Virus record (IMG/VR): IMGVR_UViG_3300034104_002622
Location: 1-64,000 of that record
Direction: 5' to 3' (one strand)
Source of the DNA: a virus
Length of the DNA: 64,000 nucleotides
Part shown: positions 16,843 to 61,128 of the stretch, piece after piece
Layout of the letters: every line of letters begins with the position of its first letter
How positions within the stretch are numbered: position 1 is the first letter of the stretch
The notes under the pieces: generated by a model
What the model saw: the letters and a program-made list of their open reading frames with translations, nothing else
The model's database searches: none
What the model was told of the DNA's origin: nothing
Position numbers and translations under genes: made by a program

Positions 16843-19800
16843 ATGAATTTCGATAATTATGACTACGGTAGCAATACAGATCAACTTCAAGAAGATCAGC
16901 CAATTAAGGCTCCTGTGGAGTTTGATTTCACTGATGCACTGGGAATTGTTAAGGCCGATAAATGGGTTGGAGCAAACCAAACTCGCCGCATAGCCACTGT
17001 AGACAAGGCTTTTGAAAAGATTGTCGAACAAGCCGAATCAGACAAATCACGTAAGATTAAATGGAATCGCCTTGGTGGAAACAAGGAGCTAGTCGAAATG
17101 CCTTTGTTTCATTCGGATGGAAGCTGGACATCCCAAGGGAAAGAATGGCTTGGTCAGCAAAGGAATTATCTAGAAGCTGCCGCTAATGACGAAACTGGTG
17201 GGATGGTAGTAAATCCTTTGTCTGGAGAATTTGAGATTGCTTCGCATTTGGCCCCGCTACTTGGAAGGAAGCAAAAACAATTTGATCCATTCAAGGATTT
17301 TGACGACATCAAACAAGATGTGGAAAGTGAAGTCGTTGATGGCAAGCCACGAGATTTTACATATGAAGCATTTCTTGAGCGAGTTAATCAAGGTAAAGAT
17401 CCTGATTCTCCATCTGCAATTGATCCTGATAACAAAGCGATGCGTGAGCAGTTTGAATCGCGTAAAAGATTAAATGATTTTGATCCTTCTACAATGGGCA
17501 ACACTCCATTTTTAATGAAAGAGGGAGTCCCTATTTTCAATCCCAAAATGCTCAATGAGCCAACAAAAATTGAAAGCGCTATTGAAACTTCTGAATTGTC
17601 TGTTGCTGATAAGAAAATGGCCCTTATCAATTTTCGTGACACTTACAATAAACTTGGTGCCGGAATAGTTAATGAGGTTTCAGATGCAGATGATATGCAG
17701 ATGCACAAGATGCCTTTGAATGCAATTGCTGATATTTTTGGCGTTGACCGTAATAATATTAGCAAACGCTTTCGTGACCATATGGCTCAGGAAGGTGGCA
17801 AGGGTTCACTGTATACTTTCATTAAAGAGAATGAAGCTGAGTTTAGTGGTGAACAGTTTGGATGGGCTGATAAACTCAATAATGCTTTTTGGAATGCTAA
17901 CCGCTCAACAGGTGGTGGTGCGTTATGGCTACTTACTGCTGGACAGAATAAAGGAGTGAATCAATTTCTTTCTGATTCAGCTCGTTCTTCCGATAGTGCT
18001 TTTGAAGGAATGGGAGGAGTTGAGAACTACCGTGTGCTTGGAATGGATTTCACCAACAAGGGCATGTATGACATGGCTGGGCAGGTTGCTTCAATGCTTG
18101 CTACTGGCGGTGCTAGTTTGGCTTTGAAGGGTGGTATCAAAGCGGCTGGCACAGTTGCTGGCGCTACTGCTGGTTCTCTTGTTCCTAAAGCTGGTGTTCT
18201 TGGAGCTGCGGCAAAAGGAGTGATGGCTTCAGATGAGGCTATTTTAGCCGCGACTAAAGCTCTTGCCCCAAACACTGCTAAGAATTTAACGATCAAAGCG
18301 CTTCGTGATCCATCTGCTTACATTGGTGGTCTTCAAGCTTCGGGTATGTCTTTTGGTTCCACCTTTAATCAAGTGATGGAAGAAACTGGTGACTATGATT
18401 TAGCTACTAAAAAAGCTAACATCGAAGGTATTTCCAGTGGTCTTTCTGCTTTTATTGCTACATCTGTTTTCAACCGGATTGCTCCGGGTGCTGAAAAGAT
18501 GATGACAGGGGTTGAGGGATCGTTGAGCGGCAGCATTGCGTCAAGGATAGCATTTGCCAAGGCTAGTGGCAGCTCCGCTACAAGAAAGGCGACTATTAAA
18601 GCCTTTGAAGACTTAGCTACAGACGAGGTGACCCGTAAGCTCTTATCTAAGGGAATGGCTGAAGCGGCGGATAAAGCTGCTAAACAAGCTGGACTAAAGG
18701 GATTTGGTCCTGCTGCTGGCGTTGTTTCGGAGTTCTTTGAGGAATCTACAGATACAGCACTCAATGATGTCATTAGCGCCGTATTGGATGATTCCAAGAC
18801 TTGGACGGATACTGTCTGGGACAACATCGGGGAGAAGTTTAGCGAGTATATGGCTGCTGGTGTAATGGGTGCTTTTGGTGGCGCTATGGGTGAAAGCGTT
18901 GGTGGTCTTACTTCGTTCTCCAAAGCCAGTCGAGAACAGCGAGCCAAAGCCGTAAAGGAACACGCATTTGCCAAATGGGAGACGATAAAAGGAAACATTG
19001 ATAGTTTTGGTGAATCAGAGATTGCTGACAAGGATGGTAAGTTTCGCCCTATTGCTGAGTTTTTAGCTTGGGATGGAGCTACTTCAGAAGAGAAAAGTAA
19101 GGCATTGGTAAATGCCGCTAGGGAGCGCACAGGGCTCCAGATCTCTCTTGAAGGGCGAGCAGTCGCTCCGGTAGTCGCAAAGCCCCCTGAGGCAGTAGAG
19201 AAGCCCAAGGAGGGAGCTTCTATAATGGATGACCTATTTGAGTCCAGACCAAAGGACGAGAATGGTAACGACATGGAATGGCAGGAAGCTAAGATCACCT
19301 ACGGACCAGAGCATAAGCTTGTGTTGGGTGGCAAGGAGGTAACGATGCAGCAGGTTGACCTTCCAAGGGATGAAGGGGTGGGAGCTCTCATTACCGATGC
19401 TGACGGCAAGAAGACGCACATCTCGGCTGCAAAGGCGAAGAAGATGCTAGAGGAGTCTAAGCCCCTTAAGAAAGGGCTTCGCGTCGGAGCTAGTCCTGAG
19501 ATGAAGCAAAGAGCAGCAATGCTTGAAAGATTTTCCGCTGATTCAAACCCAGCGCAATATGCAAAGAAAAATGAAACCAGTAAACAAAGCACAACAGTTG
19601 ATGCAGATAATAAGCAAATCGCACCTCCCAGCGAAACGCGTTCAAGAGATAGCGCTCCGCCCCAAGATGACGGCGATAGCGGAATTGCAGGGGATGGCGG
19701 GGCTAAGCAGACACGACAGTCAGACATTGGTGCACCTACTTCAACAACCCTAATTCCAGCGGCACAGAAACTTTTAGATGAAAAGGTTTCTGAAGAACGT

Positions 19801-22800
19801 CTTATTGAATTAGCTTCTTGGAAAAAAGAATCCGGAAGCCTAGATCCAAGCAACGAGCAAAAAACCCTTAATCAAATTGCAGCGAAGGCTGTATTAAAAA
19901 GCCAAGGCAAATGGGATGATGCTAACAATTCTCCATTAGCCCAGACTAAATCAGAGACACCCGCTCCAGTATCCACTGAAGCAGCCCCAGAGGTTAAGGA
20001 CACAGAGGAAGATCCTCCATTTCGTCCTGTGAATGATCCTGAAGAAATTGCTTATCGCAAAAATAAAACGATTGCTTGGGCGAAAAATACTGAGTCAGAA
20101 AGAGGTTCAAATGTTGGCAGAAAAACCATCTTTGAAAAGATTGCAGCGCTCTTTGATTCATCTCCAAAGACGGGGAATAAAGAAGAGGTTCTCGAAAGAC
20201 TAAAGAAATTTGGCGCGATGGGTCATGTTTCTGGATGGTTGAATGAAGATGCTATTCGTGAGGATTATCGCTCAGGACTGAAATACATACGTGGTGAAGT
20301 TGCTGATTCTAAGGGATCGGAACAAAAGAAACTTCTATTTGAAAGAATGGGAATCACTCCTGATGAGTTTCTTTCGTTCATAAATGATCATGGTGGAGAA
20401 GAGGCTTACGTCGAATTCATTAAGGCCCATGAGATGGGGCATATTGCTAGCGGCCATCGTGGTCAGAAAACCATCAATCAGGGTGATCTTTTAGATGATC
20501 AACACATGGGTTGGGAAACTGAGGCTAATCATTGGGCTCTAGAAACACTTGGCTTTTACGAATGGAGAAAACAACAACCAAACAAACCAAATGAAAAACA
20601 AACCGAAAACCAAGGTGACGAAGCCAAAGGGCCGCAAGTAGGTAAGATTCACAGGCCCGCTAATTCCAACGGGCTTACTGGTGATATTGTTGCGAAGTTT
20701 GCCAAAGACGGAAACAGCATCATCGTGGCAGACAATGAGACTGCGGCAAACAATGAGATCAAAAGGCAAGGCCTTGAGGGTCGTCCTGTTCTCGTGGTGA
20801 ACGCAGCTACCGCTAGTAACCGCGCAGCCGTGGAAGATGCCATTGAGGACTTCCAGAGTGGTGATAAACAGCTTGGTTCCGAAGTGGAGAGCAACACTCC
20901 CGCAATGGTTGATCCGTTAATGGAAGACCCAACCGCACCTAAGTTTTTTGCTGACATTAGTAGTCTTGATACTGAAGACAAGTTTGGTGGCAAGTGGTAT
21001 AAGTCAGGAGATACTTATACTTACACTCCAACGCAAGGTAAAGTGTTGCCTATTGGCTTAAACTCTGTTGTGGCTATTGATGGTGAACCGGATGCTGTCT
21101 TGCTTCTTGTTGGTGAAAAAGATGGTGTCTATGAATTCCGCAAGGTGGATTACAAGGTGATGGCGAAGACCCTAGGTGAGGACTTCAAGGGATACGGGAA
21201 GTTCTCTAAGGATTGGAATGATAACAGACTTAAGGAAGCAGGAAGGCACATTGAAGCTCATTTAGATAAACTCTTCAGCGGCAAGCTGAGTGAAAAAGAG
21301 TTTGATTCTATGCTCCGCAAGATTATGGCGGTTGTTGCTCCGGGTGTTCGCTTAGAGTCGATTGCTTTTGAGAAGCTTGAAAACGGTGAGTTTTTTGTAG
21401 CCCGCAGAACAACTCCTAAAGATGGAGATGGTAATGCAACGGGATTAGCCCAGACTAAAATTGTGTTAGATCGGCAAGCTTTCATGGCGAATCTTGCGAA
21501 GGTCTTCCGTGGCTATCGCACAGGTCAGGATGCGTTCTACAACAAGCTTGTAGGTAATGAGGTTGCTCGCCAGTTAGCTGCTCACGTTGACGAAGAGCTC
21601 ACCCACGTCGTTGGGATGAAGGAATTCAAAGACATCGAGGTGATTGGTTTGTTTGATGAGTTGGTTGCGTTGTCTAGAAAGGGTAAGCAGAAATTCATTT
21701 CCAGCGTGTTTAATCAGATTGCTGCAAGGCGCGTTAAGGGAAAAACCTTGGACTCTTTCACTGAGGACGAGAAATACATGGTGGGAGCAGAGACGCTACG
21801 TGCGCTCAATCAAATCCTCACCACTGGTTCATGGACGGAAGAGCAAACCAACGACGCTAAGAGGCTTCTCTTTGCGTTGAATGAGGATGCTGCTGAGGCC
21901 AAGGGGCCGCTCAAGACAGTGATCGAGCTTCTACGCCGCTACATGCTGAAGATTCGTAGGATGCTGCATATGCGCCTTCTCATGGGTCAACTGCCTCCAA
22001 ACCTTCAGGCGATGCTGAAGCGTCAGGAAACTGCTTACGTCAGGGCTAATTTGTTCGGTGACGTAGACATGATCAAAGACAAGAACGCTCAGGAAAAGAT
22101 GGAGATGGCTAGGGAGTCTCTTCTTTCCAGCCGTAAGATGATCGGCAAGGTTGCAATGAAAAATACTGGAGCTTTAGTTGAGCTAAAGAGAATTGTTAAA
22201 ACACTAAATCTAAATATCGAAGACATAATTGAAATTGATTACCGCAATGGAACAATCCGTTTGATAGATGATAGTAAGAAAGCATTCAACGGAATGAGCT
22301 TTCAAGATTTAATCAAAAGGTATGAGCCAGATGTTAACCTTGAAGATATTAATAAAGCTCTTTCGGAACTGGAAATGGAAGGTTCTGTTTTTGCTATTAT
22401 GCAGGATTTGGGTTTGGCATATCGCGCTCTTGAGGCCGCTCGCAATCTTACGCCTGATCTTCTCCCCATTCTTGATGATTCGTATGGGTTGTCCGTGAGT
22501 GAAGGTGATGAAGAAGGAGCTACGCGCAGCGATAAGGAAGATGCTGCTGAGACTGAAAAGTATCGGGTGATGCAGATGTTGGTGGCCGCTGCCCCAGCGT
22601 TTGATAACGGCAGTGCATTCATTAAAAGAAAGATGGCTGAGGTTGATTCTCTTGCGAAGAACGATTCGTTAGTTCTTTCGCAAATGAACCTTGATGTGAT
22701 TGCGGTTGTTGCTGAACTTGATTTAGGCGTTGCTAATGATGCAATCAAATTATCTAGAATTGCTGAGATGGTGAAGTATTCGCCGGGGCAAGAGGTGATG

Positions 22801-25800
22801 GATTTAAATATGGCAGCTCCTGACTTCCGGAAAAACTTGCTTAAGCGCCTCCATGAAAGGGCTACTATTAATTCGACTGATTCACTCAATTACGATGGTG
22901 AGTCACTGATTGGTGTTCATAGGATTCTCTTTGGCAAGAGGCCTGACTACAAACCATTTGTTTCTACACGTATGAAAAGGCGTGAGATGTTGGAGGATTT
23001 AGAAGCCTTCCGTCTTGCACAAATGACCGAAGCTCAAGCTGATCGTCTTCAAGCAGAACAGCTAACGCCAGAGCAAGTTAAGTCGCTCAAGCTTCTTCGT
23101 GACGCTCAAGTGGAGTCAGCTATTGCGGCTGGTCAATATGAGCAGTATGGAAGCAGCGCATTCGTAGAAAGAGCAAGGCTGAGGGCTCGTCGTATGCGTT
23201 CTGAGGCAGGAGTGAACATGGAAGTGGCGAATCGCCTTTACCAAGATTACCTCACCTACACAAAAGCATTGGATGACTACAACAAGCTGGCTACTACAGC
23301 CATCCGTGAGATGATCGGTGAAGAGTCACTGGACACAAAAGGTTTTGGTATGAGTCATCAGGACTACAACTATAACATGGATGAGTTGGTAAGCCAAAAA
23401 CCAGAAAATGTAATTCAAGTTCAAAAGGATATGTTGGCACGGCGCAGAGGAAAGATGTTTTCCGAAGCTGAGTATGAAACAGTAACTCCAGTCCGCGCAG
23501 GATTACCAAAGGAACAATCTCATAGCATAGCTCATGGTTATCCTTATAAAGATGTAGCTTGGAACGTCGCCAATAAAGACAAATCAATGACTTTAATAAC
23601 GGTCACTCAAAGTGATCCTATTACTCCTTGGTTTCCAAAGAAAGAAGGTGATCAACCTCCCAGCGATTCATTCAAAGTCACTGCGCTTCCAACTTCTAGC
23701 AATCCTTTATTTAAAAGAGGAATTCTATCTAGTGCTGCTTTTCGTGGAAACATCAATGCAATGCAGTTTTTGCAAATGCTTGATCGTGGTATCACGGGAG
23801 ACACGGCTGAGCGCTACATGGCTACTTTGGGATACGTTTCTGAGGTTGTTGAAAACGAGGATTTTGATGACATCCAATACGAAAGTATTGATAGGATACT
23901 GCCTCGCTACGCAGTCTCTAGGCTTTATGCTTTTCAAAAGGAAGAACTTTATCTTGGTAGCAGTAACGGAAAAAACCGTGCCTTAGGAATTAAAGATTTG
24001 AACAAGACATTTGGATCTAATTTAGATAAAAATCATCCTGATTACAAAAACTCAATACAAAGTTTAATTGACTCAATTCGTGACTACGCTACAAAACTTA
24101 GTCGCTCCACTAATCCTGATCTTACGATTAATGATATTGATGGACTTCAGACTCTTGCGGGAAGAAGTGCTCCGGTTATTAACGATAGAGCTAGTGAGGT
24201 TCTAAAATATCTAGCTGAGTTTGAAGCTGAGGTAAATTCTATTTCATATGCAATTAGAACTGCTGGTGAAAAAGCAACCCGTAATGAGATGGTTGGATTT
24301 TCTTCTAGGCTTTTTGCTCTTTTTAACACTAAGACAAATAGCGCTTTTGAAAATCTTGATGTTGCTATTCGTTTAGCAAACGTAAGCTCTGAAATTGCAA
24401 GGCAGGAAGCCAACTCGTTTAAGCGCATTATTCCTAATGTAATCCGAGAAAAAACTAGAACGGCTCGTGACGCTGGTTATGCTTCTAGCGAACTCTTCAG
24501 AGAGACTCGTGACAGCATGATTGATCCGGTCACGTTGACAAACATGAAGTGGTGGATTAACCGTTTTGGTAAAGATTCTCTTGCTTCGGTTGGGGGAACG
24601 TGGGCTATTGATTTAATGGAGCGGGCTGGTCGGATTGGTTTTGGCACAGCTGGAGAAATGCTGGTTACTGATGCTGCATGGGTTTGGACTCAGGCTCCAG
24701 TGTTTGAGTTTGATTCAAACGGTGATGTTGTGATGGAGCCTTTGCTTGATGAAGACGGCAAGCCTGTCATGGAGTTTTACATTGAAGATGGTCTCCAGAA
24801 AATTCAGCCAGCCATGAAGTTCAAGGCTAAGCTTGATGAGTTTGGAGAGCCTCTTACGGAGCTTCGCCAAGTTCACATAGATATGAGCGATGATGACGCA
24901 ATTGCTTACTTGATTTCCGAAAAAGACAATGCTGGTCGTGCTCCTATAAGTAGCAATATGAATGAAATTGGCTCTTCCGTTAAAGATGCGAAGATCGGAC
25001 GTTCTAGTAGCGAATCAAAGCAGTCTCCTTACGAAAAAAGTTTGCGTCAGATGGATGTGGAGAGGCAGCTTCAAAAGAAGTTTATTACTGAGGCTGGTCT
25101 ATTGATCGGCTTGCGTATTGGTGTGGATAAGAGCGCTGACGATGCTCAAGATTTTTTGAATAGGCTTTTAGCTTTGGATAGTGATTCATCTAGTTATAAT
25201 GATGTCCTTCGGGATGGACTGTCTGGTTTGTTTGGTATTGATCCATCTAATGTTGGCGAACTGATTGGAAAATTCAAAGATTTCCAACAAGGGATTTTTG
25301 AAATTAAAAGCGCACCTATTACTTCAAGGACTGAAGAGTTTGTAACTCAGAAAAAATTAGACTTATTTTCTCCATCAGGAACAATTGCAGAAAATAGAAT
25401 TGATCCCTTCTCTTTTTTAATGGAGATGATTGAGTTCAAGTCTCGGTTTGAGCGTGATCTTATTGATGCTGCACGGGTTGGTTCTGTTGACTTAGAGACA
25501 GGTGAACTTATAAGTGGTGGAAGGGGAGACTTCCGGCTTACTGAAGCGCTTAGAACGCTTTCTAACCACGCTACAGCAGGAGGACAGAATCCTCAACTTC
25601 GTGATGATTTGGCCGCAATGAATGAATCAATGATTAGGAAGGGTCGTAAGACTCTTTTCTCTGAGGTGGGTTTAGCCCAGACTAATCAGGAAGAAGCCGC
25701 TGTGATCGCTAAAATGCTTCATGATGAAAGCTTAGGAAAGGGTGAGGTTTACCTGTATGACGCGAACACGTTTGCTAAGATGGGTGACCAAGGAATTATT

Positions 25801-28800
25801 TCAACTAACGAAACAATCAACCTTATTCTCCAAAACATCCCAGACGCAATCCTCTACAAACCAACCAAGCAAACAAAAGCCAAAAACGAAGCCTACTTTG
25901 GGACGCGGTTTTTTGTTCCTATGGATGGTTCTCCTCCGGTGATCTACGTGGGAGACACGAGCAATCAGGAGGACAACAGGGTTCTCATCGAGCAAGCGCT
26001 TGGTTATCTCACCCGCCAGAAGACCGCAGAGGCCGATTTGATCGCTCAGAGGCTTATTCAGACGGCTTCCAGCATCCGGCTGGCACTAAGTCCCATAACG
26101 CACCTAGAGGAGCTAATACGCGGCCTAGGAAACAAAGCTGATTCCATCGACAATTTTATCCGTCAATACACAGATGAGCTCGCCCTAGCTAATCCAGCCT
26201 CAATGGATGGTTTAGACGAGGCTAAAAAGGCTGAGTTAAGTGGAATGATCAGAGCCTACTTCATGAAGATGCAGGACATCGGATTGATCAACACCGCCCA
26301 AAAAGCGGAACTAAACAAGATCACCGCGCTTCTGAACGAGACATCCCCTGAAGACAGCCGGAATTCTTATTCCACAGAGCGCTCACTTCTCAGTGATTCT
26401 GACCAACGTGCAGTTGAAAGAGAAAGGGACTATATAAGGCTTATGGCGGCAGACCCAATCAATGATTCAATTTCTTTGATTGCTGAAGTTTGGAGCAATC
26501 CAGAAGCTAAACGACTGTTGGATCGTGTGATGATTGGGGATAACATCGTCAACACGCTCGACTCTCTTTCCGATCAAACCCTTGCCCGTGGCATTCAAGC
26601 CGTGAAGCAAATGGGTGAATCCAATCCAGAGGATCAGACAATCGCTGATCATTTTGATTCCGTTAATTCCCAAGAAGTGGCTCAGGACAACCTCAATGAA
26701 GAGGGTTCTGAGGACATCGACAACAGGGACGTTGACACATGGGCTGATGAGTATGACAAAGCCCTAGAGCAAGCTAGGAAAGAGGCTGGTGAGCAATCCG
26801 ATCTTGAGAAACCACAGGAGCTTTCTACTGAAGACAAGGAAAAGTTTCTTGCTCTTGTTCCATCGGCAAACAACATCCGTCGATTCTTCCGTGCTCGCTT
26901 GTTCGACAAGGCCGAGTTTGGCCCAATGGACGACAAGTTAGCTGCTATTGTTGAGGATTACTCCCAGAATGGGGGGTTGAGCCCAGCAGATGCGTTGCTC
27001 TTCAATACCTTGATGGATGTGGTGAGCGTTCAAAAGACGCTACAAGCTCCCGTTATTGTGGATAACAACAGCGATGTCACTCCGGGTCGTGAAATTCTTG
27101 GTGATCTTGGCACTCGTGATGGCGCAAATCCTATAGTTGGAAACAACGAGGGATCAAAATGGAGGGGTCGCCGTGGTGAGCGAGCTCCGTTTGTTGGGGC
27201 ATGGCACACGTTAATGACTGGAAGACAGAACGGAAGAACCGCTCCTACTCTTGTTTTTGAACGGAAACGCTATCAAAAGTTTGCTGGTGGATTTCTTGAT
27301 CGTGTTCCTTTTATTAATGAGATAATTCAGACTCAAGCTGAAAAATCAATTAATGAAGCTGTCGATAATTACAATGAAGCTAAGCATAAGAATTTGCCTA
27401 ATTTTATTTCTTATCCACGTGCATACGTTGACATCCCGCTAACTCAGGAGGTTTACGAGCAGATTGGTTCTTACCTGCCTACTGGCAAGCTTGCTGCGGC
27501 TGAGGCCGAAGTAAGGGAGAATATCCAGAAGATGTTTAAGTTGCGCGAGAACGCAGAGAGACAGCGGGATAAGGCCAAGGCTGTAATCGAGGAGTTTGAG
27601 AATCGGGCTCTGGAGAATCCATTGTTTGAGCGTATTCAGCAATGGCAATTCCAAGGAAACGTCCGTAGCATGATTGAGGCTCAAATCTTGGATGAGGCCT
27701 ACAATACAGCTTTGGAGGTTAAGTCTGCTGCTGGTGGGGATACAAGGCTTGAGAAACTGCTGAACACCTACGCTACAAAATCACGTTTTCAGAGTGATCG
27801 TTACAAAGAAGTTTTCAACGACATTCAACAGGATGCTATTCGCCTTCGTCAGTTGATTGCTAATGCTGATGCGCTGATTGAGGCAGAGCAAGAGGCTACT
27901 GGTGAGATTGTGAAAGATCGTGGGGTCGTTTACTACGCTGATCCAAAAATTTTTCTTCAGCAGAAATTATTGAATAGCAATATCCAGAAGCTCAATCAGA
28001 TCGTTAACAAGGACATGGAATCCGTATGGCGGCTTGTTATCGAGGATGACAATAACGCTAAGTCGGTATTCTCTGAGAACTCCAAGAAGTTCATCAAGAT
28101 TAATGAAGTGGAAGACCTTTTCAAATTTAGGTTTGGAATGCTTGAAGATGATTTAACGAGGATGTTTTCTCGTGATGGTTTGCGTAATGTGTTTCTTCGT
28201 CCGTTGGTTGAACAAGCGGTTGGCGGGTTTGGTCGGGAAACTTCTTCTCTTGCTTCCCGCGAGATGCAGATGCCGACGAAGACCACGGCTAAGAAAAAAT
28301 CGAAAGAGATTGAAGCAGTAAGGCTGCAAGCGAAGCGTCAACGCAGAAAGATGATTTCTCGCCTTGTCAATATGATTAAGCAGGGCAGCACACGTAATGA
28401 GATTAAAATGTATCTGACTCGTCAGCTTGAAGGTCGTTTTAACGCGCTAGAAAGTAATGCGAATAGTCCATTCAATGATTCTTTTCGCGCTATGCTGGAT
28501 GAGATTTCAATGCCTAGTGATGCGCTTGTTGAAATCCTTCGCTATGACGAAGGAGTTAAGAGTACGGAAGAAGCAGCAAGGCTTACAAAAGCAGAGAACG
28601 TCTTATTAAAAAGTGAGCGCTTACTGGCTCAGATGAACGACCCAAACGTCACAGTTAAATCTGGTGGATATTTTTCTCGTCTGGCTTTTAATAATACAAG
28701 CGATGCTCTCGCTGGTATCCACACTCACATCGGTAGCGATCAATCTTTAAATCCGCTTGGTGGTCGCCACAAAGTCCCTATCACCATGACGTTTGTCCCT

Positions 28801-31800
28801 GAGGACGCGTTAAGTCCAATGGTCACTGAGATGACCCGCAAGGATGAGCTTGCGGCCTACCGCTCTAAGTGGAACAAGGAGTTTAAGGATGCAGCTAATC
28901 CGTATGAGTTTTACATTAGGCAACAAGCTATCTCTCGCGCATTGAGCGACTACGCTGAAAAAGCTGACGTTCTGCACCGTGCAATTAAGCAACAAGAAAC
29001 CTATATCAACAACTACAACCCAGCAGCCATCATCCAACAAGTTACGGATACGATGGCTATTCAGGACAGGCTCTCACAAGAGCGGATTAACCGTATCAAA
29101 GCTGATTCTGAAGGAGTGAGCCATCATGCTGTTGCACCGGACGTAGTAGCCCTCTTAGCCGTCCCTGAAGAGCAGAGCTTCTACTCTGTGAGTAACGTGA
29201 AGGAACTCAACAAGCTCGCTGATAAGGCGAAGCAGAAAGGCCTTGAGTTATCGAAGGCTATTGATGAAGTGAAGGGTTACGAGACGCGGATTGCACAAGC
29301 AAAGAACAAAGGCCAATTCATGCAAGCCGACAAGCTTGGAGTTCTTTTAGTTAAGGCTAAAGCAAATAGGGATGGCATTGCCGACGATCTTAAGACCATT
29401 GGGAAACGTCGTGTGGCTCTTCGGGCTGCACGTAGGGTTTCTAGGCACACGATTCCAGAGAACATGAAAGAGCGCCGCGAGTTGGTTGCTCACCTTGTTA
29501 ATGATGGCGAATGGTTGCTTCTTGGTTCCATCACCGCAGCGCAGGACTTGAAGAACCGATTCGTAGTTCAGAGCGGGAAAGCCCAAAGTGGAGAGTCAAT
29601 GATGCGTGACATCGTATTGAGTTCCGTTCCTGAAGAAGATGAATCAGAAGACGGGACAGTTCACCTCCAGAACAGGATGGGCTTTACTTCCGTATACAGG
29701 AATGAAGCATGGACTCACACTGATTTCACATCTCCCGCTTGGAGTCTCGCTGCAAATTCAACCAGAGAAAGCGCATCAAAACAATTTGCTGCTCGCTATT
29801 CATCGAACGTAGTTGAACGAGCCAATAGAAGGCTGGCAGAAAGAAGGAATGATCCACTTGCTCGCGCTGGAGACGAAGACAGGAAGATTGACACGAACAA
29901 CACTTTCGTTAAAAAACAACTGGAGATGTTTGAGTTCTACGTTGAATCCATTGCTCTTGCCTATGACCGAAACACTTTGAGTGGGGAAACAAGGAAAAGG
30001 GTTTTTGATTTCCTGAAAACGCTAGCGGATGGAAAGATTGCCCAATCGAATGATGCTGCTGAGTCTGTCGATCTCATTGATCTTTATGCCTCGGTTGTTT
30101 CTGAGATTGAAGGACCGGAGGCTATGAAGCTGCTGATTGCTGGTATCGTGCCGCTGTCGGGACCTGCTCGCTTCTCAATGAAGGCTTTGCACCACCATGA
30201 GTCTAAGCTAAGAATGACGTTTATGAAGACCCATATTGCTCAGATGGAGGCCCGTAGGCTTCATGGATACCTTGAGCACGGCTTCGACCTGAAATCAGGA
30301 CGCAACACCCACACAAACGAATTCAACAAAGCAAAGGCAAAACTAGAAGAAAAGGCAAAGCTCTTAGGATTGGATTCTTTGCAGCAGTCAATTCCTTATG
30401 TGATTGCTAGTCTAAAGGGTTTGACTAAAACTAGATCGGCTTCTCTTGCTGGCAATCTTTCGATGTGGGCTAGTGATTTCCAAACAGGATCGCGTGATCT
30501 TAAGCAGTTGTTTGATTCTCAAAATGAATTAGCAGCGGGACAAAAGTTTGGGAAGATACGCAAGTATTTCACAGCGGAGCATGTGGATGTCATTCGTGAC
30601 TACGCAATGGTCAAAGAAGTGTATGAAACCATTCGCCCTATTTTGCGTGATGTTGGAACGAGCCCGTCTGGAACTGATAAGAACGCTCATGCTTTGGAAT
30701 TGATCAATAAAGCTATCGCTGCGCTAGAGGAAAAGATTCCAGCGAACTTGCAACAAGCATCCAAAGACTACTCTGACACTTTAGGAACAACTTTCAAAGG
30801 CTTATCGGATGCTTCTGAGTTGACATTGATTATGATGAGTCATCCTGATGCCACTCCAGATGAAGGACAGGCTTACCAGAAGTGGTTGCATGGAGGATTA
30901 AGAGGTGACGCTACGTTCGTGACTACAGTTCCTCTTCGCTACGGACACGCGGCCAATCCTAAGTCTATTGGTAAAAGTTTTGAACCCCGCCAATACAAGG
31001 AAGACCCATTAGAAGAGGTTGGCATGATGAGTCTTTCGCTTTTGGGTGGTCCGGGAAAACAAGCTAGAACTCGTAAAGATAACGAAGATGCTCAAACTTA
31101 CCGCCCAATCAATCTCAATGGGCTGTCTGGGACTATCGCTCTTTTGGATGATACTCTTTACCGCCTTAACGTAACTCCTACCTACTCTATTCTCAGGAAG
31201 ATTGTAGGAAAGGAGGAAGTGAATCAGCGGAATCAGGGTGAGGTTGTTGGATCAAAGGTGATGGCTAAGCTTGGTGATTCTCCCGAAGGTGAAATAGCTA
31301 GGAAGTGGCGTGTGGCGCTTGGTGCAATCTCGGAAGAAATGGACATCAAGGTTGCTAACGACATGAAGTTTGGAGTGGCGAACACTGCTTTCTCTGAAAC
31401 CCTCAATTACCTTTCATCGTTGATGATGGTTAGGTCGTTGTTTTCTTTCCAGCAGTTCTGGAACCAATCTGGTCCATCAGTATTGGGATACATTGTGAAA
31501 AAGTCTGTGACGGGGAATTACAAGGATGCTATTCAGATGGTTCGCCTACTATCTAAGATTATCGCTTCAAAAGCTGGAGGTGATTCTCAATTTAACGACG
31601 AAGCTAAGCAGTTTGTAGCGAATGTTGCTACTTGGGTAAACTTCCGTGGTGCTGATGGCATTGATAAGCTTGACCAACTTCGCAGGAAGCAAGTCAGGCA
31701 TGGCGCTGGGCTTGGTAAAAAATGGTCAGGATATGCTCTTAATCAGATTACCAACCTTGGAGAAAAGTCTCTTGACTTTAGTATAGCTAAAGTTGAGCGG

Positions 31801-32904
31801 GCTTTATCTCGCTCTATTTTCATTACTGAATTGTTAGCTGAACTTCGATGGATGGAAAAGAACGGACAAATTGAAAAGGCTCCAAAGGACGAAATGGAAT
31901 TGATTGGCAGGAAGGATTTTAAAAACATTCCCATGGAAGCTGTTCAATACGCTGAGGCGAAAGTGAGCGATCACATGGGGGTTGCTGACCAAGCCAAGAA
32001 AGCAATGCCTTTCCAAAATCTCACTAGGTCTCCTTCGTGGAATGCCTTGATCCGCACCATATCTAGGTTCTCTAATCACCAAGCCTCCACTTCAAGCGGT
32101 ATGGCTGCTATGCTGCCGATGATCTGGAAGGCTGAGACAGGAGAGGATGGTAAGCTCACAATTGGTGGTCAGAGAGCGAGACAAGAAGCCATCGAGAACA
32201 TTACGGGAACGGTAATCCAAAACAGCTTGTTCCACATTATGAAGCTCAAGGTGCTTGTTCCAATTGTTTTGTCGGTGATTTACGGAATGGGTGACGACGA
32301 TGACGAGGAAGCTCAAGTTAGGGCTCAGGAGATGGCCGACAAATTAATGGCCCCGGACGAAGAGGGTAATCCAATAGTCAATGCGGCCAAAGCGGTGATT
32401 TTTGGAAAGCAGTCCCAATTTTTCAGGGACGAAAAAACACCCGAGGCTGCGGCGGCTTCGGCATATGCTTCGCTAGGATCGAGCATTGTGTCTGAAATAA
32501 TCCCTATGGCTCACCCGCTAACTGCGGCATTTGGGTTTTATCCTGCGCATTTTGCGTTTAAGGCAGCGATTACGAACCAGTTGATTCAAGATGCTACAGC
32601 AAAAATGACTGGATTAGATTCAGCACAAAGCAGATGGGAAGATGATGCGGTTTACATTTACGAGCGAGAAGAAGGTGGGGTGCAGACTGCTATGGGCATG
32701 ACTGCTCCTAGTTCTGTTGTTTACGACTTGGGTGCTGCGGCCGCATTATCAACAGAAGCTGCTTTCGCAGAAGAATCTAATGTCTTAGACATTATTGCTT
32801 ACATGATAAGCGAAGTCGTTCCGGTTACTCGTGAACTTCGCGGAAGGTTGAAGCAGAAGGTTGAAGAGTCTGTCTGGGAACAGCGTTCAGAAGATAATCG
32901 TTAG
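16843..32904 (+). CDS. Giant 5,353-aa virion/ejection protein with ImmA/IrrE-type metallopeptidase motif
   Basis: One uninterrupted frame of 16 kb, about a quarter of the window. Residues about 410-480 are a hydrophobic Gly/Ala-rich segment (GGASLALKGGIKAAG...). Near residue 1196 is 'HEMGHIASGHR', followed by 'ETEANHWALETLGF', the HExxH...ExEAN arrangement of ImmA/IrrE (M78) zinc peptidases. Residues about 1,900-4,900 are helical and highly charged. Near residue 5,140 is a hydrophobic helix (LVPIVLSVIYGMG) followed by a DDDDEE cluster. I see no RNA polymerase motifs like those of N4 vRNAP. Giant 'polyvalent' phage proteins of this kind are thought to be injected with the DNA. The stop is TAG, within a palindrome copy. 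Confidence 0.75.
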   Translation: MNFDNYDYGSNTDQLQEDQPIKAPVEFDFTDALGIVKADKWVGANQTRRIATVDKAFEKIVEQAESDKSRKIKWNRLGGNKELVEMPLFHSDGSWTSQGKEWLGQQRNYLEAAANDETGGMVVNPLSGEFEIASHLAPLLGRKQKQFDPFKDFDDIKQDVESEVVDGKPRDFTYEAFLERVNQGKDPDSPSAIDPDNKAMREQFESRKRLNDFDPSTMGNTPFLMKEGVPIFNPKMLNEPTKIESAIETSELSVADKKMALINFRDTYNKLGAGIVNEVSDADDMQMHKMPLNAIADIFGVDRNNISKRFRDHMAQEGGKGSLYTFIKENEAEFSGEQFGWADKLNNAFWNANRSTGGGALWLLTAGQNKGVNQFLSDSARSSDSAFEGMGGVENYRVLGMDFTNKGMYDMAGQVASMLATGGASLALKGGIKAAGTVAGATAGSLVPKAGVLGAAAKGVMASDEAILAATKALAPNTAKNLTIKALRDPSAYIGGLQASGMSFGSTFNQVMEETGDYDLATKKANIEGISSGLSAFIATSVFNRIAPGAEKMMTGVEGSLSGSIASRIAFAKASGSSATRKATIKAFEDLATDEVTRKLLSKGMAEAADKAAKQAGLKGFGPAAGVVSEFFEESTDTALNDVISAVLDDSKTWTDTVWDNIGEKFSEYMAAGVMGAFGGAMGESVGGLTSFSKASREQRAKAVKEHAFAKWETIKGNIDSFGESEIADKDGKFRPIAEFLAWDGATSEEKSKALVNAARERTGLQISLEGRAVAPVVAKPPEAVEKPKEGASIMDDLFESRPKDENGNDMEWQEAKITYGPEHKLVLGGKEVTMQQVDLPRDEGVGALITDADGKKTHISAAKAKKMLEESKPLKKGLRVGASPEMKQRAAMLERFSADSNPAQYAKKNETSKQSTTVDADNKQIAPPSETRSRDSAPPQDDGDSGIAGDGGAKQTRQSDIGAPTSTTLIPAAQKLLDEKVSEERLIELASWKKESGSLDPSNEQKTLNQIAAKAVLKSQGKWDDANNSPLAQTKSETPAPVSTEAAPEVKDTEEDPPFRPVNDPEEIAYRKNKTIAWAKNTESERGSNVGRKTIFEKIAALFDSSPKTGNKEEVLERLKKFGAMGHVSGWLNEDAIREDYRSGLKYIRGEVADSKGSEQKKLLFERMGITPDEFLSFINDHGGEEAYVEFIKAHEMGHIASGHRGQKTINQGDLLDDQHMGWETEANHWALETLGFYEWRKQQPNKPNEKQTENQGDEAKGPQVGKIHRPANSNGLTGDIVAKFAKDGNSIIVADNETAANNEIKRQGLEGRPVLVVNAATASNRAAVEDAIEDFQSGDKQLGSEVESNTPAMVDPLMEDPTAPKFFADISSLDTEDKFGGKWYKSGDTYTYTPTQGKVLPIGLNSVVAIDGEPDAVLLLVGEKDGVYEFRKVDYKVMAKTLGEDFKGYGKFSKDWNDNRLKEAGRHIEAHLDKLFSGKLSEKEFDSMLRKIMAVVAPGVRLESIAFEKLENGEFFVARRTTPKDGDGNATGLAQTKIVLDRQAFMANLAKVFRGYRTGQDAFYNKLVGNEVARQLAAHVDEELTHVVGMKEFKDIEVIGLFDELVALSRKGKQKFISSVFNQIAARRVKGKTLDSFTEDEKYMVGAETLRALNQILTTGSWTEEQTNDAKRLLFALNEDAAEAKGPLKTVIELLRRYMLKIRRMLHMRLLMGQLPPNLQAMLKRQETAYVRANLFGDVDMIKDKNAQEKMEMARESLLSSRKMIGKVAMKNTGALVELKRIVKTLNLNIEDIIEIDYRNGTIRLIDDSKKAFNGMSFQDLIKRYEPDVNLEDINKALSELEMEGSVFAIMQDLGLAYRALEAARNLTPDLLPILDDSYGLSVSEGDEEGATRSDKEDAAETEKYRVMQMLVAAAPAFDNGSAFIKRKMAEVDSLAKNDSLVLSQMNLDVIAVVAELDLGVANDAIKLSRIAEMVKYSPGQEVMDLNMAAPDFRKNLLKRLHERATINSTDSLNYDGESLIGVHRILFGKRPDYKPFVSTRMKRREMLEDLEAFRLAQMTEAQADRLQAEQLTPEQVKSLKLLRDAQVESAIAAGQYEQYGSSAFVERARLRARRMRSEAGVNMEVANRLYQDYLTYTKALDDYNKLATTAIREMIGEESLDTKGFGMSHQDYNYNMDELVSQKPENVIQVQKDMLARRRGKMFSEAEYETVTPVRAGLPKEQSHSIAHGYPYKDVAWNVANKDKSMTLITVTQSDPITPWFPKKEGDQPPSDSFKVTALPTSSNPLFKRGILSSAAFRGNINAMQFLQMLDRGITGDTAERYMATLGYVSEVVENEDFDDIQYESIDRILPRYAVSRLYAFQKEELYLGSSNGKNRALGIKDLNKTFGSNLDKNHPDYKNSIQSLIDSIRDYATKLSRSTNPDLTINDIDGLQTLAGRSAPVINDRASEVLKYLAEFEAEVNSISYAIRTAGEKATRNEMVGFSSRLFALFNTKTNSAFENLDVAIRLANVSSEIARQEANSFKRIIPNVIREKTRTARDAGYASSELFRETRDSMIDPVTLTNMKWWINRFGKDSLASVGGTWAIDLMERAGRIGFGTAGEMLVTDAAWVWTQAPVFEFDSNGDVVMEPLLDEDGKPVMEFYIEDGLQKIQPAMKFKAKLDEFGEPLTELRQVHIDMSDDDAIAYLISEKDNAGRAPISSNMNEIGSSVKDAKIGRSSSESKQSPYEKSLRQMDVERQLQKKFITEAGLLIGLRIGVDKSADDAQDFLNRLLALDSDSSSYNDVLRDGLSGLFGIDPSNVGELIGKFKDFQQGIFEIKSAPITSRTEEFVTQKKLDLFSPSGTIAENRIDPFSFLMEMIEFKSRFERDLIDAARVGSVDLETGELISGGRGDFRLTEALRTLSNHATAGGQNPQLRDDLAAMNESMIRKGRKTLFSEVGLAQTNQEEAAVIAKMLHDESLGKGEVYLYDANTFAKMGDQGIISTNETINLILQNIPDAILYKPTKQTKAKNEAYFGTRFFVPMDGSPPVIYVGDTSNQEDNRVLIEQALGYLTRQKTAEADLIAQRLIQTASSIRLALSPITHLEELIRGLGNKADSIDNFIRQYTDELALANPASMDGLDEAKKAELSGMIRAYFMKMQDIGLINTAQKAELNKITALLNETSPEDSRNSYSTERSLLSDSDQRAVERERDYIRLMAADPINDSISLIAEVWSNPEAKRLLDRVMIGDNIVNTLDSLSDQTLARGIQAVKQMGESNPEDQTIADHFDSVNSQEVAQDNLNEEGSEDIDNRDVDTWADEYDKALEQARKEAGEQSDLEKPQELSTEDKEKFLALVPSANNIRRFFRARLFDKAEFGPMDDKLAAIVEDYSQNGGLSPADALLFNTLMDVVSVQKTLQAPVIVDNNSDVTPGREILGDLGTRDGANPIVGNNEGSKWRGRRGERAPFVGAWHTLMTGRQNGRTAPTLVFERKRYQKFAGGFLDRVPFINEIIQTQAEKSINEAVDNYNEAKHKNLPNFISYPRAYVDIPLTQEVYEQIGSYLPTGKLAAAEAEVRENIQKMFKLRENAERQRDKAKAVIEEFENRALENPLFERIQQWQFQGNVRSMIEAQILDEAYNTALEVKSAAGGDTRLEKLLNTYATKSRFQSDRYKEVFNDIQQDAIRLRQLIANADALIEAEQEATGEIVKDRGVVYYADPKIFLQQKLLNSNIQKLNQIVNKDMESVWRLVIEDDNNAKSVFSENSKKFIKINEVEDLFKFRFGMLEDDLTRMFSRDGLRNVFLRPLVEQAVGGFGRETSSLASREMQMPTKTTAKKKSKEIEAVRLQAKRQRRKMISRLVNMIKQGSTRNEIKMYLTRQLEGRFNALESNANSPFNDSFRAMLDEISMPSDALVEILRYDEGVKSTEEAARLTKAENVLLKSERLLAQMNDPNVTVKSGGYFSRLAFNNTSDALAGIHTHIGSDQSLNPLGGRHKVPITMTFVPEDALSPMVTEMTRKDELAAYRSKWNKEFKDAANPYEFYIRQQAISRALSDYAEKADVLHRAIKQQETYINNYNPAAIIQQVTDTMAIQDRLSQERINRIKADSEGVSHHAVAPDVVALLAVPEEQSFYSVSNVKELNKLADKAKQKGLELSKAIDEVKGYETRIAQAKNKGQFMQADKLGVLLVKAKANRDGIADDLKTIGKRRVALRAARRVSRHTIPENMKERRELVAHLVNDGEWLLLGSITAAQDLKNRFVVQSGKAQSGESMMRDIVLSSVPEEDESEDGTVHLQNRMGFTSVYRNEAWTHTDFTSPAWSLAANSTRESASKQFAARYSSNVVERANRRLAERRNDPLARAGDEDRKIDTNNTFVKKQLEMFEFYVESIALAYDRNTLSGETRKRVFDFLKTLADGKIAQSNDAAESVDLIDLYASVVSEIEGPEAMKLLIAGIVPLSGPARFSMKALHHHESKLRMTFMKTHIAQMEARRLHGYLEHGFDLKSGRNTHTNEFNKAKAKLEEKAKLLGLDSLQQSIPYVIASLKGLTKTRSASLAGNLSMWASDFQTGSRDLKQLFDSQNELAAGQKFGKIRKYFTAEHVDVIRDYAMVKEVYETIRPILRDVGTSPSGTDKNAHALELINKAIAALEEKIPANLQQASKDYSDTLGTTFKGLSDASELTLIMMSHPDATPDEGQAYQKWLHGGLRGDATFVTTVPLRYGHAANPKSIGKSFEPRQYKEDPLEEVGMMSLSLLGGPGKQARTRKDNEDAQTYRPINLNGLSGTIALLDDTLYRLNVTPTYSILRKIVGKEEVNQRNQGEVVGSKVMAKLGDSPEGEIARKWRVALGAISEEMDIKVANDMKFGVANTAFSETLNYLSSLMMVRSLFSFQQFWNQSGPSVLGYIVKKSVTGNYKDAIQMVRLLSKIIASKAGGDSQFNDEAKQFVANVATWVNFRGADGIDKLDQLRRKQVRHGAGLGKKWSGYALNQITNLGEKSLDFSIAKVERALSRSIFITELLAELRWMEKNGQIEKAPKDEMELIGRKDFKNIPMEAVQYAEAKVSDHMGVADQAKKAMPFQNLTRSPSWNALIRTISRFSNHQASTSSGMAAMLPMIWKAETGEDGKLTIGGQRARQEAIENITGTVIQNSLFHIMKLKVLVPIVLSVIYGMGDDDDEEAQVRAQEMADKLMAPDEEGNPIVNAAKAVIFGKQSQFFRDEKTPEAAAASAYASLGSSIVSEIIPMAHPLTAAFGFYPAHFAFKAAITNQLIQDATAKMTGLDSAQSRWEDDAVYIYEREEGGVQTAMGMTAPSSVVYDLGAAAALSTEAAFAEESNVLDIIAYMISEVVPVTRELRGRLKQKVEESVWEQRSEDNR

Positions 32905-58842: not shown

Positions 58843-58991
58843 GGTTGGTAGTCTTGGTGTATTTTTGTGTCGTGATCAAAAGATTCGTAGATTTCTTTTT
58901 TTATTGATTGAATTAATAGTTTTGTATCTTCAATCATTAGTTGCAGTATTAGTATTAGCATTCCTGTTAATGCGAATGTTAGAGTTATCAT
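58839..58991 (-). CDS. 50-aa single-pass membrane protein
   Basis: 'MITLTFALTGMLILILQLMI' is a membrane helix from the first residue, then an amphipathic charged tail ('EDTKLLIQSIKKEIYESF'). The stop overlaps the next ATG (ATGA), supporting reality. Function unknown. Confidence 0.55.
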   Translation of the reverse strand: MITLTFALTGMLILILQLMIEDTKLLIQSIKKEIYESFDHDTKIHQDYQP

Positions 58992-59033
58992 ATTATATTG
59001 TTTTGGGAAAGCGTCTCCCCTAGAAATTCTTTA

Positions 59034-59049
59034 TTTAGCCGAGGCTAAA
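59034..59049. repeat. 16-bp palindrome next to the structured region
   Basis: TTTAGCCGAGGCTAAA, the most symmetrical copy (perfect arms TTTAGCC/GGCTAAA), 43 bp upstream of the 50-aa gene and at the edge of the gene-free region. Confidence 0.7.
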
Positions 59050-59890
59050 AACCCAGTAACTAGGGAATTCGAATTGCTAGAGGAGACATTTACACACACA
59101 CTGAGAAAGTGATTGCCACTGGAGGTAGAGGGCGAGCTACTTGCGCCTCACTCATTCGTTCCATCTCCAGCGGCAAATTGATTGCTTCGCCCATGTTCTA
59201 GTTAGCATGGCTCAACCTGAGGCTTAGTGACTGCTGCTAAAGTCTACTTATTGCCTACGAAGCAAAGGGGTTTTGGTTGTACAAGTTACGTCTCCAAGAG
59301 TGGGATTGCACCATCTAGTATTCACTGGCATACGCCCTTACTGTTTTCACTTTACAACCAAAATTCATTACGTTTTTGAAAGTGGCAGTCTTTGTCAGCA
59401 ATTGGCGTGTGGAGACGCCTACGTTTTACACAGCAACCAAAGAGCTTATCATACTCATTTGGCTCTTTGCACCCGCTCCGTATCGTGATTACCGGATGCT
59501 GACTCACTGACAAAGACCTTTAGATAGCAGCTTACGGCTGCAAGTCGTAACGACTATGCTCAAACGGTCGTTAAGCGTCAGTGTGGGAGGAGTATTTTCT
59601 GCGTGGCTGCGAGGGCGCATACTCCATGGATATTTCTCACTCTTTAGCCATGACCTCATTTAAGCACCACATCTCAACCTTTGGTCAGGTCGCTCACGTA
59701 TCAGACCTCTGCCTACATGCTGTGACTGATAGCTAATCAGTTTGCCAAGGTGGGTTGAATGGGGCTGGCAAGTGTTCTTTTTTACCCTAAGTAAGATCGT
59801 CAGGTCATGCCCTCACTGCAAAGGCTGAAATGTGGTGACTGCTTACGCCAGTCAATCGAAGTGATGTTTTTTGTAGGCTCACTTATTTAT
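59050..59890 (-). ncRNA. Candidate large structured RNA (about 0.8 kb)
   Basis: No coding frame is convincing in 850 bp. Long perfect inverted repeats are nested: 11 bp at 59271-59281/59353-59363, 11 bp at 59388-59398/59507-59517, 6+6 bp at 59661-59672/59830-59845. Local hairpins add to these (59438/59462, 59527/59537, 59548/59567, 59589/59619). On the minus strand the region ends in a short CCC...GGG hairpin followed by TTTTT (59050-59065), which could terminate it. Large ornate RNAs such as GOLLD and ROOL occur in phages near tRNA/tmRNA genes; I cannot match it to either by eye. Confidence 0.5.
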
Positions 59891-59900
59891 CCCAGATTGT

Positions 59901-60113
59901 TTAGAACAAAGTGTTTGGAGCAAATTTGAATTTATGCCATCCAGCTTTGTGCTTTTCTTGCGCAAGTGCTTTGCGTTCTTTGTGATCTTGCAACATGGCT
60001 TGATGTTTTTCATGCCTGTCTTGACATTTTTGCGGTGTTTCTTTTGCTTTGAATTGCGGAGTCCATTTTGTTATGAATTCGATTTTATCGCTGTATTTTA
60101 CTGGGTTTGTCAT
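59901..60113 (-). CDS. Hypothetical basic protein
   Basis: 70 aa, Lys/Gln/His-rich: 'ITKWTPQFKAKETPQKCQDRHEKHQAMLQDHKERKAL'. A single charged helix is likely. It lies between the HNH gene and the structured region. Unknown. Confidence 0.5.
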   Translation of the reverse strand: MTNPVKYSDKIEFITKWTPQFKAKETPQKCQDRHEKHQAMLQDHKERKALAQEKHKAGWHKFKFAPNTLF

Positions 60114-60148: not shown

Positions 60149-60688
60149 TTACCTATTGGTAAGAGTTCTGTATTTTCCGGTTTTTGACAATTGGTAAGAT
60201 AGTGATGAAGGGCTAATTCCGTATTTTAATTTTAGTTTTTTGTATCCGAGTCCAGCTTTGTGATCTGCTCGAACTTCCGCCCATGTTTCATCTGTGTGAC
60301 GGCTTGCTGATCTTGATGCTTTTTGTGCGTGAAGTCTTCTTTCTTTTGGGCATCTATCCATTGCATTTTCCGATCCTGTTCCTAAGCGGATGTTTTGAGG
60401 AGTGTTATTTAGGGAGTTCCCATCAAGATGTCTTGTGTGTATGGAATTTTTTAAAGCATCTTCGCCAAATAGCTGAAAAGCTAGTAGTCGATGCACTTTT
60501 ACTGGGTAGCGTTTGGAATTACCTATTCCTACGTTGAAAACATAATACGGGATTGGGTTTTGTCCTGTTCCTGATTTTGTGATTTGTAGTTTTCGGGTTT
60601 TTCCTATTGCATTGCATACACTTCCATCATTCATTACTCGATAGCCTTTCTTGAACGCTATTCTGATTGCTTCTTTTGTTTTAGACAT
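60149..60688 (-). CDS. HNH homing-type endonuclease
   Basis: 179 aa from ATG 60688. 'YPVKVHRLLAFQLFGEDAL' and 'HTRHLDGNSLNNTPQNIRLGT' are the core of HNH_3 homing endonucleases, followed by a small HTH-like C-terminus ('YKKLKLKYGISPSSLSYQL') that would read the target site. It lies directly downstream of the tmRNA, a location where homing genes often insert. Confidence 0.85.
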   Translation of the reverse strand: MSKTKEAIRIAFKKGYRVMNDGSVCNAIGKTRKLQITKSGTGQNPIPYYVFNVGIGNSKRYPVKVHRLLAFQLFGEDALKNSIHTRHLDGNSLNNTPQNIRLGTGSENAMDRCPKERRLHAQKASRSASRHTDETWAEVRADHKAGLGYKKLKLKYGISPSSLSYQLSKTGKYRTLTNR

Positions 60689-60736
60689 GTTCAAACTTAC
60701 TTGATTAAGGGTTTGATGCAAGTCTTAATTTGGAAC

Positions 60737-61128
60737 TGGAGCTGGCGGGAGTCGAACCCGCGTCCACAACACTGTTAAATACATTTTCTACAAGCTTAGT
60801 CCTTTCGGACATTGGGGACGCTGGTTAGGCGACCTTCCACCACTCAGTTTTTACGCCGCTGAGTTGCGTTGTTTGCCTTACTGTTTCAGGTCATCCGCCC
60901 GAAGGCACGGCGTAGGATGATCTTACCCGGTTTGTTTCCCTTCGTAGAGCGAGCGTTTCGGAGGGCGTGTTTTGCTTAGGCTACGAGAGCAACTGTGTTG
61001 CTTCCGAAGTTTCCGCGAATGACGTTGTTGCCATTTGTTTGTTTTGAGCGGCTTATTAAAGAGGCCAGCCGATCAACCTCTACTTGCTTATGTATCCTAT
61101 CGCGTTGTGTCGAAACCATTACAGCCCC
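60737..61128 (-). ncRNA. ssrA: tmRNA (transfer-messenger RNA)
   Basis: 392 nt. The 5' end GGGGCTGTAATGGTTTCGACA pairs with the 3' end CAGCTCC to form the acceptor stem, and the 3' part contains the canonical GCGGGTTCGACTCCCGC T-arm; CCA is not encoded. 'ACTAAGCTTGTAGA' near the 3' end matches the E. coli segment. The reading frame ends ...GTT GCT CTC GTA GCC TAA, giving a tag ending NTVALVA (preceded by about NNVIRGNFGS), close to the usual ALAA degron. It rescues ribosomes stalled on broken mRNA. Confidence 0.93.

What the first reader, a model, noticed from the sequence alone, without database searches (positions are those of the whole stretch)
59050..59890. Gene-free 0.84-kb region with nested long-range pairing: candidate giant ncRNA
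In a genome with tightly packed genes, 850 bp has no plausible gene but has two 11-bp perfect inverted repeats (59271/59353, 59388/59507), a 6+6-bp long-range stem (59661/59830) and many local hairpins. CGTCTCC (59289) with GGAGACG (59411) crosses the first stem, a possible pseudoknot. The location near a tmRNA and an HNH gene is like that of GOLLD and ROOL RNAs in other phages.
Basis: partly seen in the sequence, partly recalled or inferred. Interest (0 to 1): 0.78.

Follow-up and report, generated by a model that had tools for sequence, protein, structure and literature searches.

The report
New modular structured RNA in phages
The gene-free stretch in this environmental phage encodes a real structured RNA, built around a roughly 200-base folded unit that recurs in about 40 virus contigs and matches no family in the Rfam library, so it is a new phage RNA family whose function is still unknown.

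Summary
Window 59,010-59,890 lies between two co-oriented minus-strand genes, has no plausible gene, and contains both 11-bp inverted repeats (0.06 expected by chance). The "6+6-bp long-range stem" is part of an 18-bp helix.

That helix closes a conserved RNA module (59,666-59,863, minus strand): 5' hairpin, P1, a sequence-conserved internal loop (UGAGGG / AGCGACCUGAY), P2 and an exchangeable apical insert. I found it in about 40 IMG/VR contigs, sometimes in tandem, before many different genes. Covariation is very strong: 95% of cells paired against 35-47% for slid controls. The apical insert is a second covarying domain. Two smaller elements 3' of it recur elsewhere with compensatory changes. 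The last ~500 nt (59,010-59,520) has only near-identical relatives and is unproven.

Rfam 15 has no match: not GOLLD, ROOL, HEARO or OLE. Most relatives are 110-200 nt and lack a nearby tRNA or tmRNA, so "giant" and "GOLLD/ROOL-like setting" are not family traits. The proposed pseudoknot is no better than chance.

Best reading: a modular stand-alone phage ncRNA of unknown function, probably a protein- or RNA-binding scaffold. A cis-acting intercistronic element is the main rival.

The parts
59901..60113 (-). 70-aa ORF just 5' of the RNA; its C-terminal part (HEKHQAMLQDHKERKALAQEKHKAGWHKFKFAPNTLF) has relatives directly 5' of the module in L046 and L074
   Evidence: no Pfam or PHROG match
59837..59853 (-). 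Module A, P0: 5' hairpin GACUG-GCGUAAG-CAGUC, directly before P1; the sequence differs but a hairpin forms in nearly all relatives
   Evidence: folds of the relatives' 30-nt leaders
59819..59836 (-). Module A, P1 5' strand (ACCACAUUUCAGCCUUUG), pairs with 59666-59683
   Evidence: helix 98% paired in 25 sequences, 10 pairs with double changes
59810..59816 (-). Module A, conserved internal loop 5' strand (R-UGAGGG); R59816 pairs with Y59684 (GC 14, AU 10, GU 1)
59701..59809 (-). P2 (CAUG/CGUG) and apical insert; in this phage the insert is a second domain (nested domain N, about 59712-59789), shared with L046, L070, L074, L077, L079, L080, L085, L096, L137
   Evidence: 94.6% of cells paired vs at most 48% slid, 11 pairs with double changes
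59684..59700 (-). P2 3' strand and conserved internal loop 3' strand (ACGUG-AGCGACCUGA-C)
59666..59683 (-). Module A, P1 3' strand (CAAAGGUUGAGAUGUGGU)
59589..59662 (-). Module C: shared with L204 (84% over 71 nt); stem 59589-59595/59619-59625 GGAGUAU/AUACUCC reads CUGGUGU/ACACCAG in L204, 4 of 7 pairs changed on both sides
   Evidence: a scan found it only in these relatives
59525..59548 (-). Hairpin B: ACGACUUGCAGC-CGUAA-GCUGCUA; CGACUUGCNGCCGUAAGCNGC occurs in 43 viral stretches, the two N always complementary (31 of 31 distinct copies; CG, TA, AT, GC)
59388..59517 (-). Domain 2: 11-bp stem 59388-59398/59507-59517 enclosing local hairpins; lineage-specific, no covariation data
59271..59363 (-). 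Domain 3: 11-bp stem 59271-59281/59353-59363; lineage-specific, no covariation data
59115..59174 (-). Domain 4: long imperfect hairpin GCCGCUGGAG.../...CUCCAGUGGC
59013..59087 (-). 3' terminal stem GUCUCCUCUAG/CUAGGGGAGAC with inner palindrome hairpin UUUAGCC..GGCUAAA; one weak terminator-like site at 59064-59052

Best explanation
The region encodes a modular structured noncoding RNA of a family not in Rfam. SHOWN: the 5' ~200 nt (module A plus nested domain) is an RNA structure maintained by selection; module A occurs in about 40 virus contigs. SHOWN: two further elements 3' of it (module C, hairpin B) recur elsewhere with compensatory changes. SHOWN: the unit sits between co-oriented genes, its apical insert is swapped between phages, and it can be duplicated. 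INFERRED: it is transcribed with its neighbours as part of a polycistronic phage mRNA, since no minus-strand promoter was found and it fills the gap almost exactly, and is then trimmed out as a stable RNA. INFERRED: the conserved asymmetric internal loop in a long helix is the working site, a binding platform for a phage or host protein or RNA, and the apical insert and 3' domains are exchangeable arms. In this phage the arms have grown to about 0.85 kb.
For:: 95.2% of 650 cells paired vs 34.5-46.6% in slid controls; 15 of 26 pairs and 80 cells with double changes (0 of 500 shuffles reach any of these); the nested domain is likewise 94.6% vs at most 48%; hairpin B N-N complementary in 31 of 31 distinct copies; module C stem with 4 of 7 double changes; near-invariant loop sequence with inserts of 12-105 nt of varied sequence; tandem copies in L067 and the L089/L090 group; many different downstream ORFs (names given by eye from the sequences, not by a family search), which argues against control of one gene; z = -4.67 for the minus strand.
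Against: No transcript data. No minus-strand promoter and only a weak terminator-like site, so an independent RNA is not shown. The module is intercistronic and co-oriented with its neighbours, as a cis element would be. For 59,010-59,520 only near-identical relatives exist; of the 13 substitutions in the whole RNA between the window and L003, 3 break pairs of the centroid fold, the random expectation being 3.5.
Confidence: 0.6

Rival explanations
1. Cis-acting intercistronic mRNA element: the long helix with its conserved internal loop is a processing site (as RNase III sites between T7 early genes, from general knowledge), an attenuator or a ligand-sensing leader controlling the next gene.
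For: Lies between co-oriented genes, often 10-55 nt after a stop codon; no promoter of its own; a DNA polymerase-like ORF directly downstream in L079.
Against: Downstream ORFs look unrelated and start at very different distances. Tandem copies and swapped inserts. The near-invariant loop letters exceed what simple double-strand processing needs. In the window about 670 nt of further sequence separates the module from the next gene.
Confidence: 0.27
2. A giant self-assembling RNA working like GOLLD or ROOL (RNA-only cage), with module A as one domain.
For: Phage-borne, about 0.85 kb here, near a tmRNA, multi-domain.
Against: No Rfam similarity. Most relatives are far shorter and not near tRNA or tmRNA genes. 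The long 3' part is not conserved outside near-identical phages.
Confidence: 0.08
3. Module A is catalytic (self-cleaving ribozyme or degenerate intron).
For: Conserved internal loop in a compact fold; phages carry ribozymes and introns (general knowledge); an HNH gene lies about 300 nt 5' of the module.
Against: No match to any Rfam ribozyme or intron family. The module sits between genes, not within one. No HNH-like ORF was recognised as a regular neighbour.
Confidence: 0.04
4. Non-functional spacer with chance repeats, or a DNA-level element.
For: The 3' part is lineage-specific; a palindrome repeated in the genome (TTTAGCC..GGCTAAA) lies inside it.
Against: Covariation including G-U pairs excludes this for 59,666-59,863.
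Confidence: 0.01

Closest known systems
GOLLD RNA
   Same: Large structured RNA of phages, >800 nt, unknown function, often near tRNA islands (PMC12286853). One conserved region plus one less conserved region.
   Different: No Rfam match; the conserved unit here is at the 5' side (GOLLD's is 3'), 110-200 nt, and occurs alone and in tandem; no tRNA island in most relatives.
ROOL RNA
   Same: Large ornate RNA of phages and prophages, unknown function (PMC12286853).
   Different: No Rfam match; module A was not found in bacterial genomes.
Proteo-phage-1 RNA (Rfam RF03044)
   Same: Small phage RNA; one copy lies in L122, which also carries hairpin B.
   Different: The model matches neither the window's RNA nor hairpin B itself.
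T7-type RNase III processing sites
   Same: Long hairpins with an internal loop between co-oriented phage genes (general knowledge).
   Different: Module A has a near-invariant loop sequence, a separate 5' hairpin and exchangeable domain-size inserts; processing was not tested.

Membership tests
GOLLD | Score above the Rfam covariance-model threshold | tested here: not met
   no GOLLD match even at E up to 10 (window) or 1 (four relatives)
GOLLD | Location near tRNA islands in phages | tested here: not met
   a tmRNA is near the window copy and its near-identical relatives only; few of the other module loci scanned have a tRNA
GOLLD | Homo-oligomeric RNA cage (14-mer) | not testable with these tools
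   needs in vitro assembly or cryo-EM
ROOL | Score above the Rfam covariance-model threshold | tested here: not met
HEARO / OLE | Score above the Rfam covariance-model threshold | tested here: not met
Group I / group II introns | Rfam intron core and an interrupted gene | tested here: not met
   no Rfam match; the region lies between two ORFs
New module-A family (defined here) | P0 hairpin, 18-bp P1, loop UGAGGG/AGCGACCUGAY, P2, variable insert | tested here: met
   (the window copy was in the model's training set)
Trans-acting ncRNA | Discrete stable transcript on the minus strand | not testable with these tools
   no RNA data

The most novel reading that the evidence does not exclude
An undescribed lineage of uncultured phages uses a mix-and-match system of RNA domains (module A, nested domain N, module C, hairpin B, tRNA-like pieces) between its genes, assembled differently in each phage into RNAs of 0.1-0.9 kb that act in trans, with the conserved loop of module A binding one common phage or host target.
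Probability: 0.35. Interest if true: 0.85.

Novelty: new variant of a known kind. Interest (0 to 1): 0.62.

Why it matters
Structured phage RNAs of unknown function are an open problem. This adds a family with strong covariation support, absent from Rfam 15, with a small conserved core (about 110 nt) that can be made and probed, and swappable arms that hint at how giant phage RNAs may grow from small modules.

Tried and rejected
Rfam at permissive thresholds gave only chance matches for these loci. blastn of the RNA against cultured phages and plasmids gave nothing credible. Pattern scans of 84,980 bacterial and archaeal genomes: 0 hits (strict) and 29 hits (loose), of which none is convincing by model R1; the best is 15.7 bits, E = 0.067. 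Relative G005 has a tmRNA but no module, so tmRNA and module do not travel together. Substitutions between the window and its 98.7% relative L003 are too few to test domains 2-5. A Pseudomonas phage RSP match looked like an RNA gap but the gap reads as unannotated coding sequence without the hairpin. One phage blastn query covered the wrong stretch of L069; repeated with the right one. The pseudoknot 59289/59411 was not pursued because a 7-bp match in 850 nt is expected by chance.

Full report
What was checked. The window is part of a 73,283-bp IMG/VR virus record. Between a 70-aa ORF ending at 59,901 and a 50-aa ORF starting at 58,991, both on the minus strand, there is no plausible gene. Flanking proteins have no Pfam match except the HNH endonuclease at 60,149-60,721. 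The tmRNA at 60,737-61,128 is confirmed by ARAGORN and Rfam. The minus strand folds 4.7 standard deviations below shuffles, the plus strand 3.1.

Finding relatives. Only two contigs share the neighbouring 587-aa protein: L002, identical, and L003, 98.7% identical over the RNA. Relatives of the primase-helicase gave further phages. blastn of the RNA against those records gave a 73% match in G008 and short matches in G006, G007 and G014. The short matches fall on the two arms of one helix. Pattern scans with the arms and model searches gave about 40 contigs in all. All are IMG/VR records; no copy was found in the phage, plasmid or bacterial genome collections searched.

Module A. Twenty-five copies align without gaps once the variable insert is left out. 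The structure is a 5' hairpin (P0), an 18-bp P1, a two-base CA bulge, an R-Y pair (G-C 14, A-U 10, G-U 1), a conserved internal loop UGAGGG / AGCGACCUGAY, and P2 leading to an insert. Of 650 pair cells 95.2% are standard pairs, against 34.5-46.6% when the partner is slid; 15 of 26 pairs and 80 cells show changes on both sides, never reached in 500 shuffles. In the window P1 reads UUUG/CAAA where most relatives have UCCG/CGGG or UCCG/CGGA, and GUCG/CGAC occurs in L089.

Nested domain. The window's insert is itself a conserved domain shared with nine more distant contigs. Its 22 consensus pairs are 94.6% paired against at most 48% slid, with 11 pairs changed on both sides. That structure was derived from the same alignment, so the percentage leans in its favour; the double changes are the stronger evidence.

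Further 3'. Module C (59,589-59,662) was found only in L204 besides the close relatives, directly after module A as in the window, with 4 of 7 stem pairs changed on both sides. Hairpin B (59,525-59,548) matches CGACUUGCNGCCGUAAGCNGC, which occurs in 43 viral stretches of many different phages; in 31 of 31 distinct copies the two free positions are complementary, with all four Watson-Crick types. No Rfam family covers it where those loci were scanned. The remaining ~500 nt (59,010-59,520) has only near-identical relatives, so its domains rest on folding and the inverted repeats alone.

Context. Module A lies between co-oriented genes, often 10-55 nt after a stop codon, before many different ORFs. 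Two tandem copies occur in L067 and in the L089/L090 group. tRNA or tmRNA genes are absent from most of these loci. No minus-strand promoter-like site was found and one weak terminator-like site lies at 59,064-59,052.

Interpretation. The covariation shows selection on RNA structure. Variety of downstream genes, tandem copies and swapped inserts favour a stand-alone RNA over a regulator of one gene; the steady intercistronic position keeps a processing or regulatory element alive. The function proposed, a binding platform with exchangeable arms, is inference. Likeness to GOLLD and ROOL (described in PMC12286853 as large phage RNAs often near tRNA islands, forming cages) is superficial: phage origin and, in this one phage, length.

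Novelty. Nothing in Rfam 15 matches module A, the nested domain, module C or hairpin B in the sequences scanned. Literature searches found no description, but only open-licence papers are held and a sequence motif cannot be searched by words. It is best called a new family within the known kind of structured phage RNAs of unknown function.

Noticed in passing
window 16272, 51319, 59034, 63022; also L012, L014, L071, L074, L087: Palindrome TTTAGCC(0-3)GGCTAAA is repeated across these phage genomes, inside genes and between them (3 full copies in the window, 0 in 20 shuffles; 6 in 13 kb of L071). Possibly a protein-binding or replication-related site.
   Followed up: partly
L098-L136, window 59525-59548: Hairpin CGACUUGC-N-GCCGUAAGC-N-GC is widespread in different phages, including records whose neighbourhood matches Pseudomonas phages and one with a 15-tRNA array (L117), sometimes just upstream of a gene start or beside tRNA-like pieces; not in Rfam.
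   Followed up: partly
L066, L069, L120, L087: Next to module A or hairpin B are tRNA-like sequences with an intact T-arm (e.g. CGGAGGTTCGAATCCTCC) that ARAGORN does not call as tRNAs, and in L066/L069 several hundred further bases of ncRNA-looking sequence.
   Followed up: no
window 60149-60721 vs L003: The HNH gene is 100% identical between the window and L003 while the flanking RNA, small ORF and tmRNA differ, suggesting recent transfer or gene conversion of the HNH gene.
   Followed up: no
window 59901-60113: Small basic H/K-rich protein with relatives directly 5' of module A in L046 and L074; possible RNA-binding partner.
   Followed up: partly
window 16843-32904: A single 5353-aa ORF (about 16 kb) in a 73-kb phage record.
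   Followed up: no
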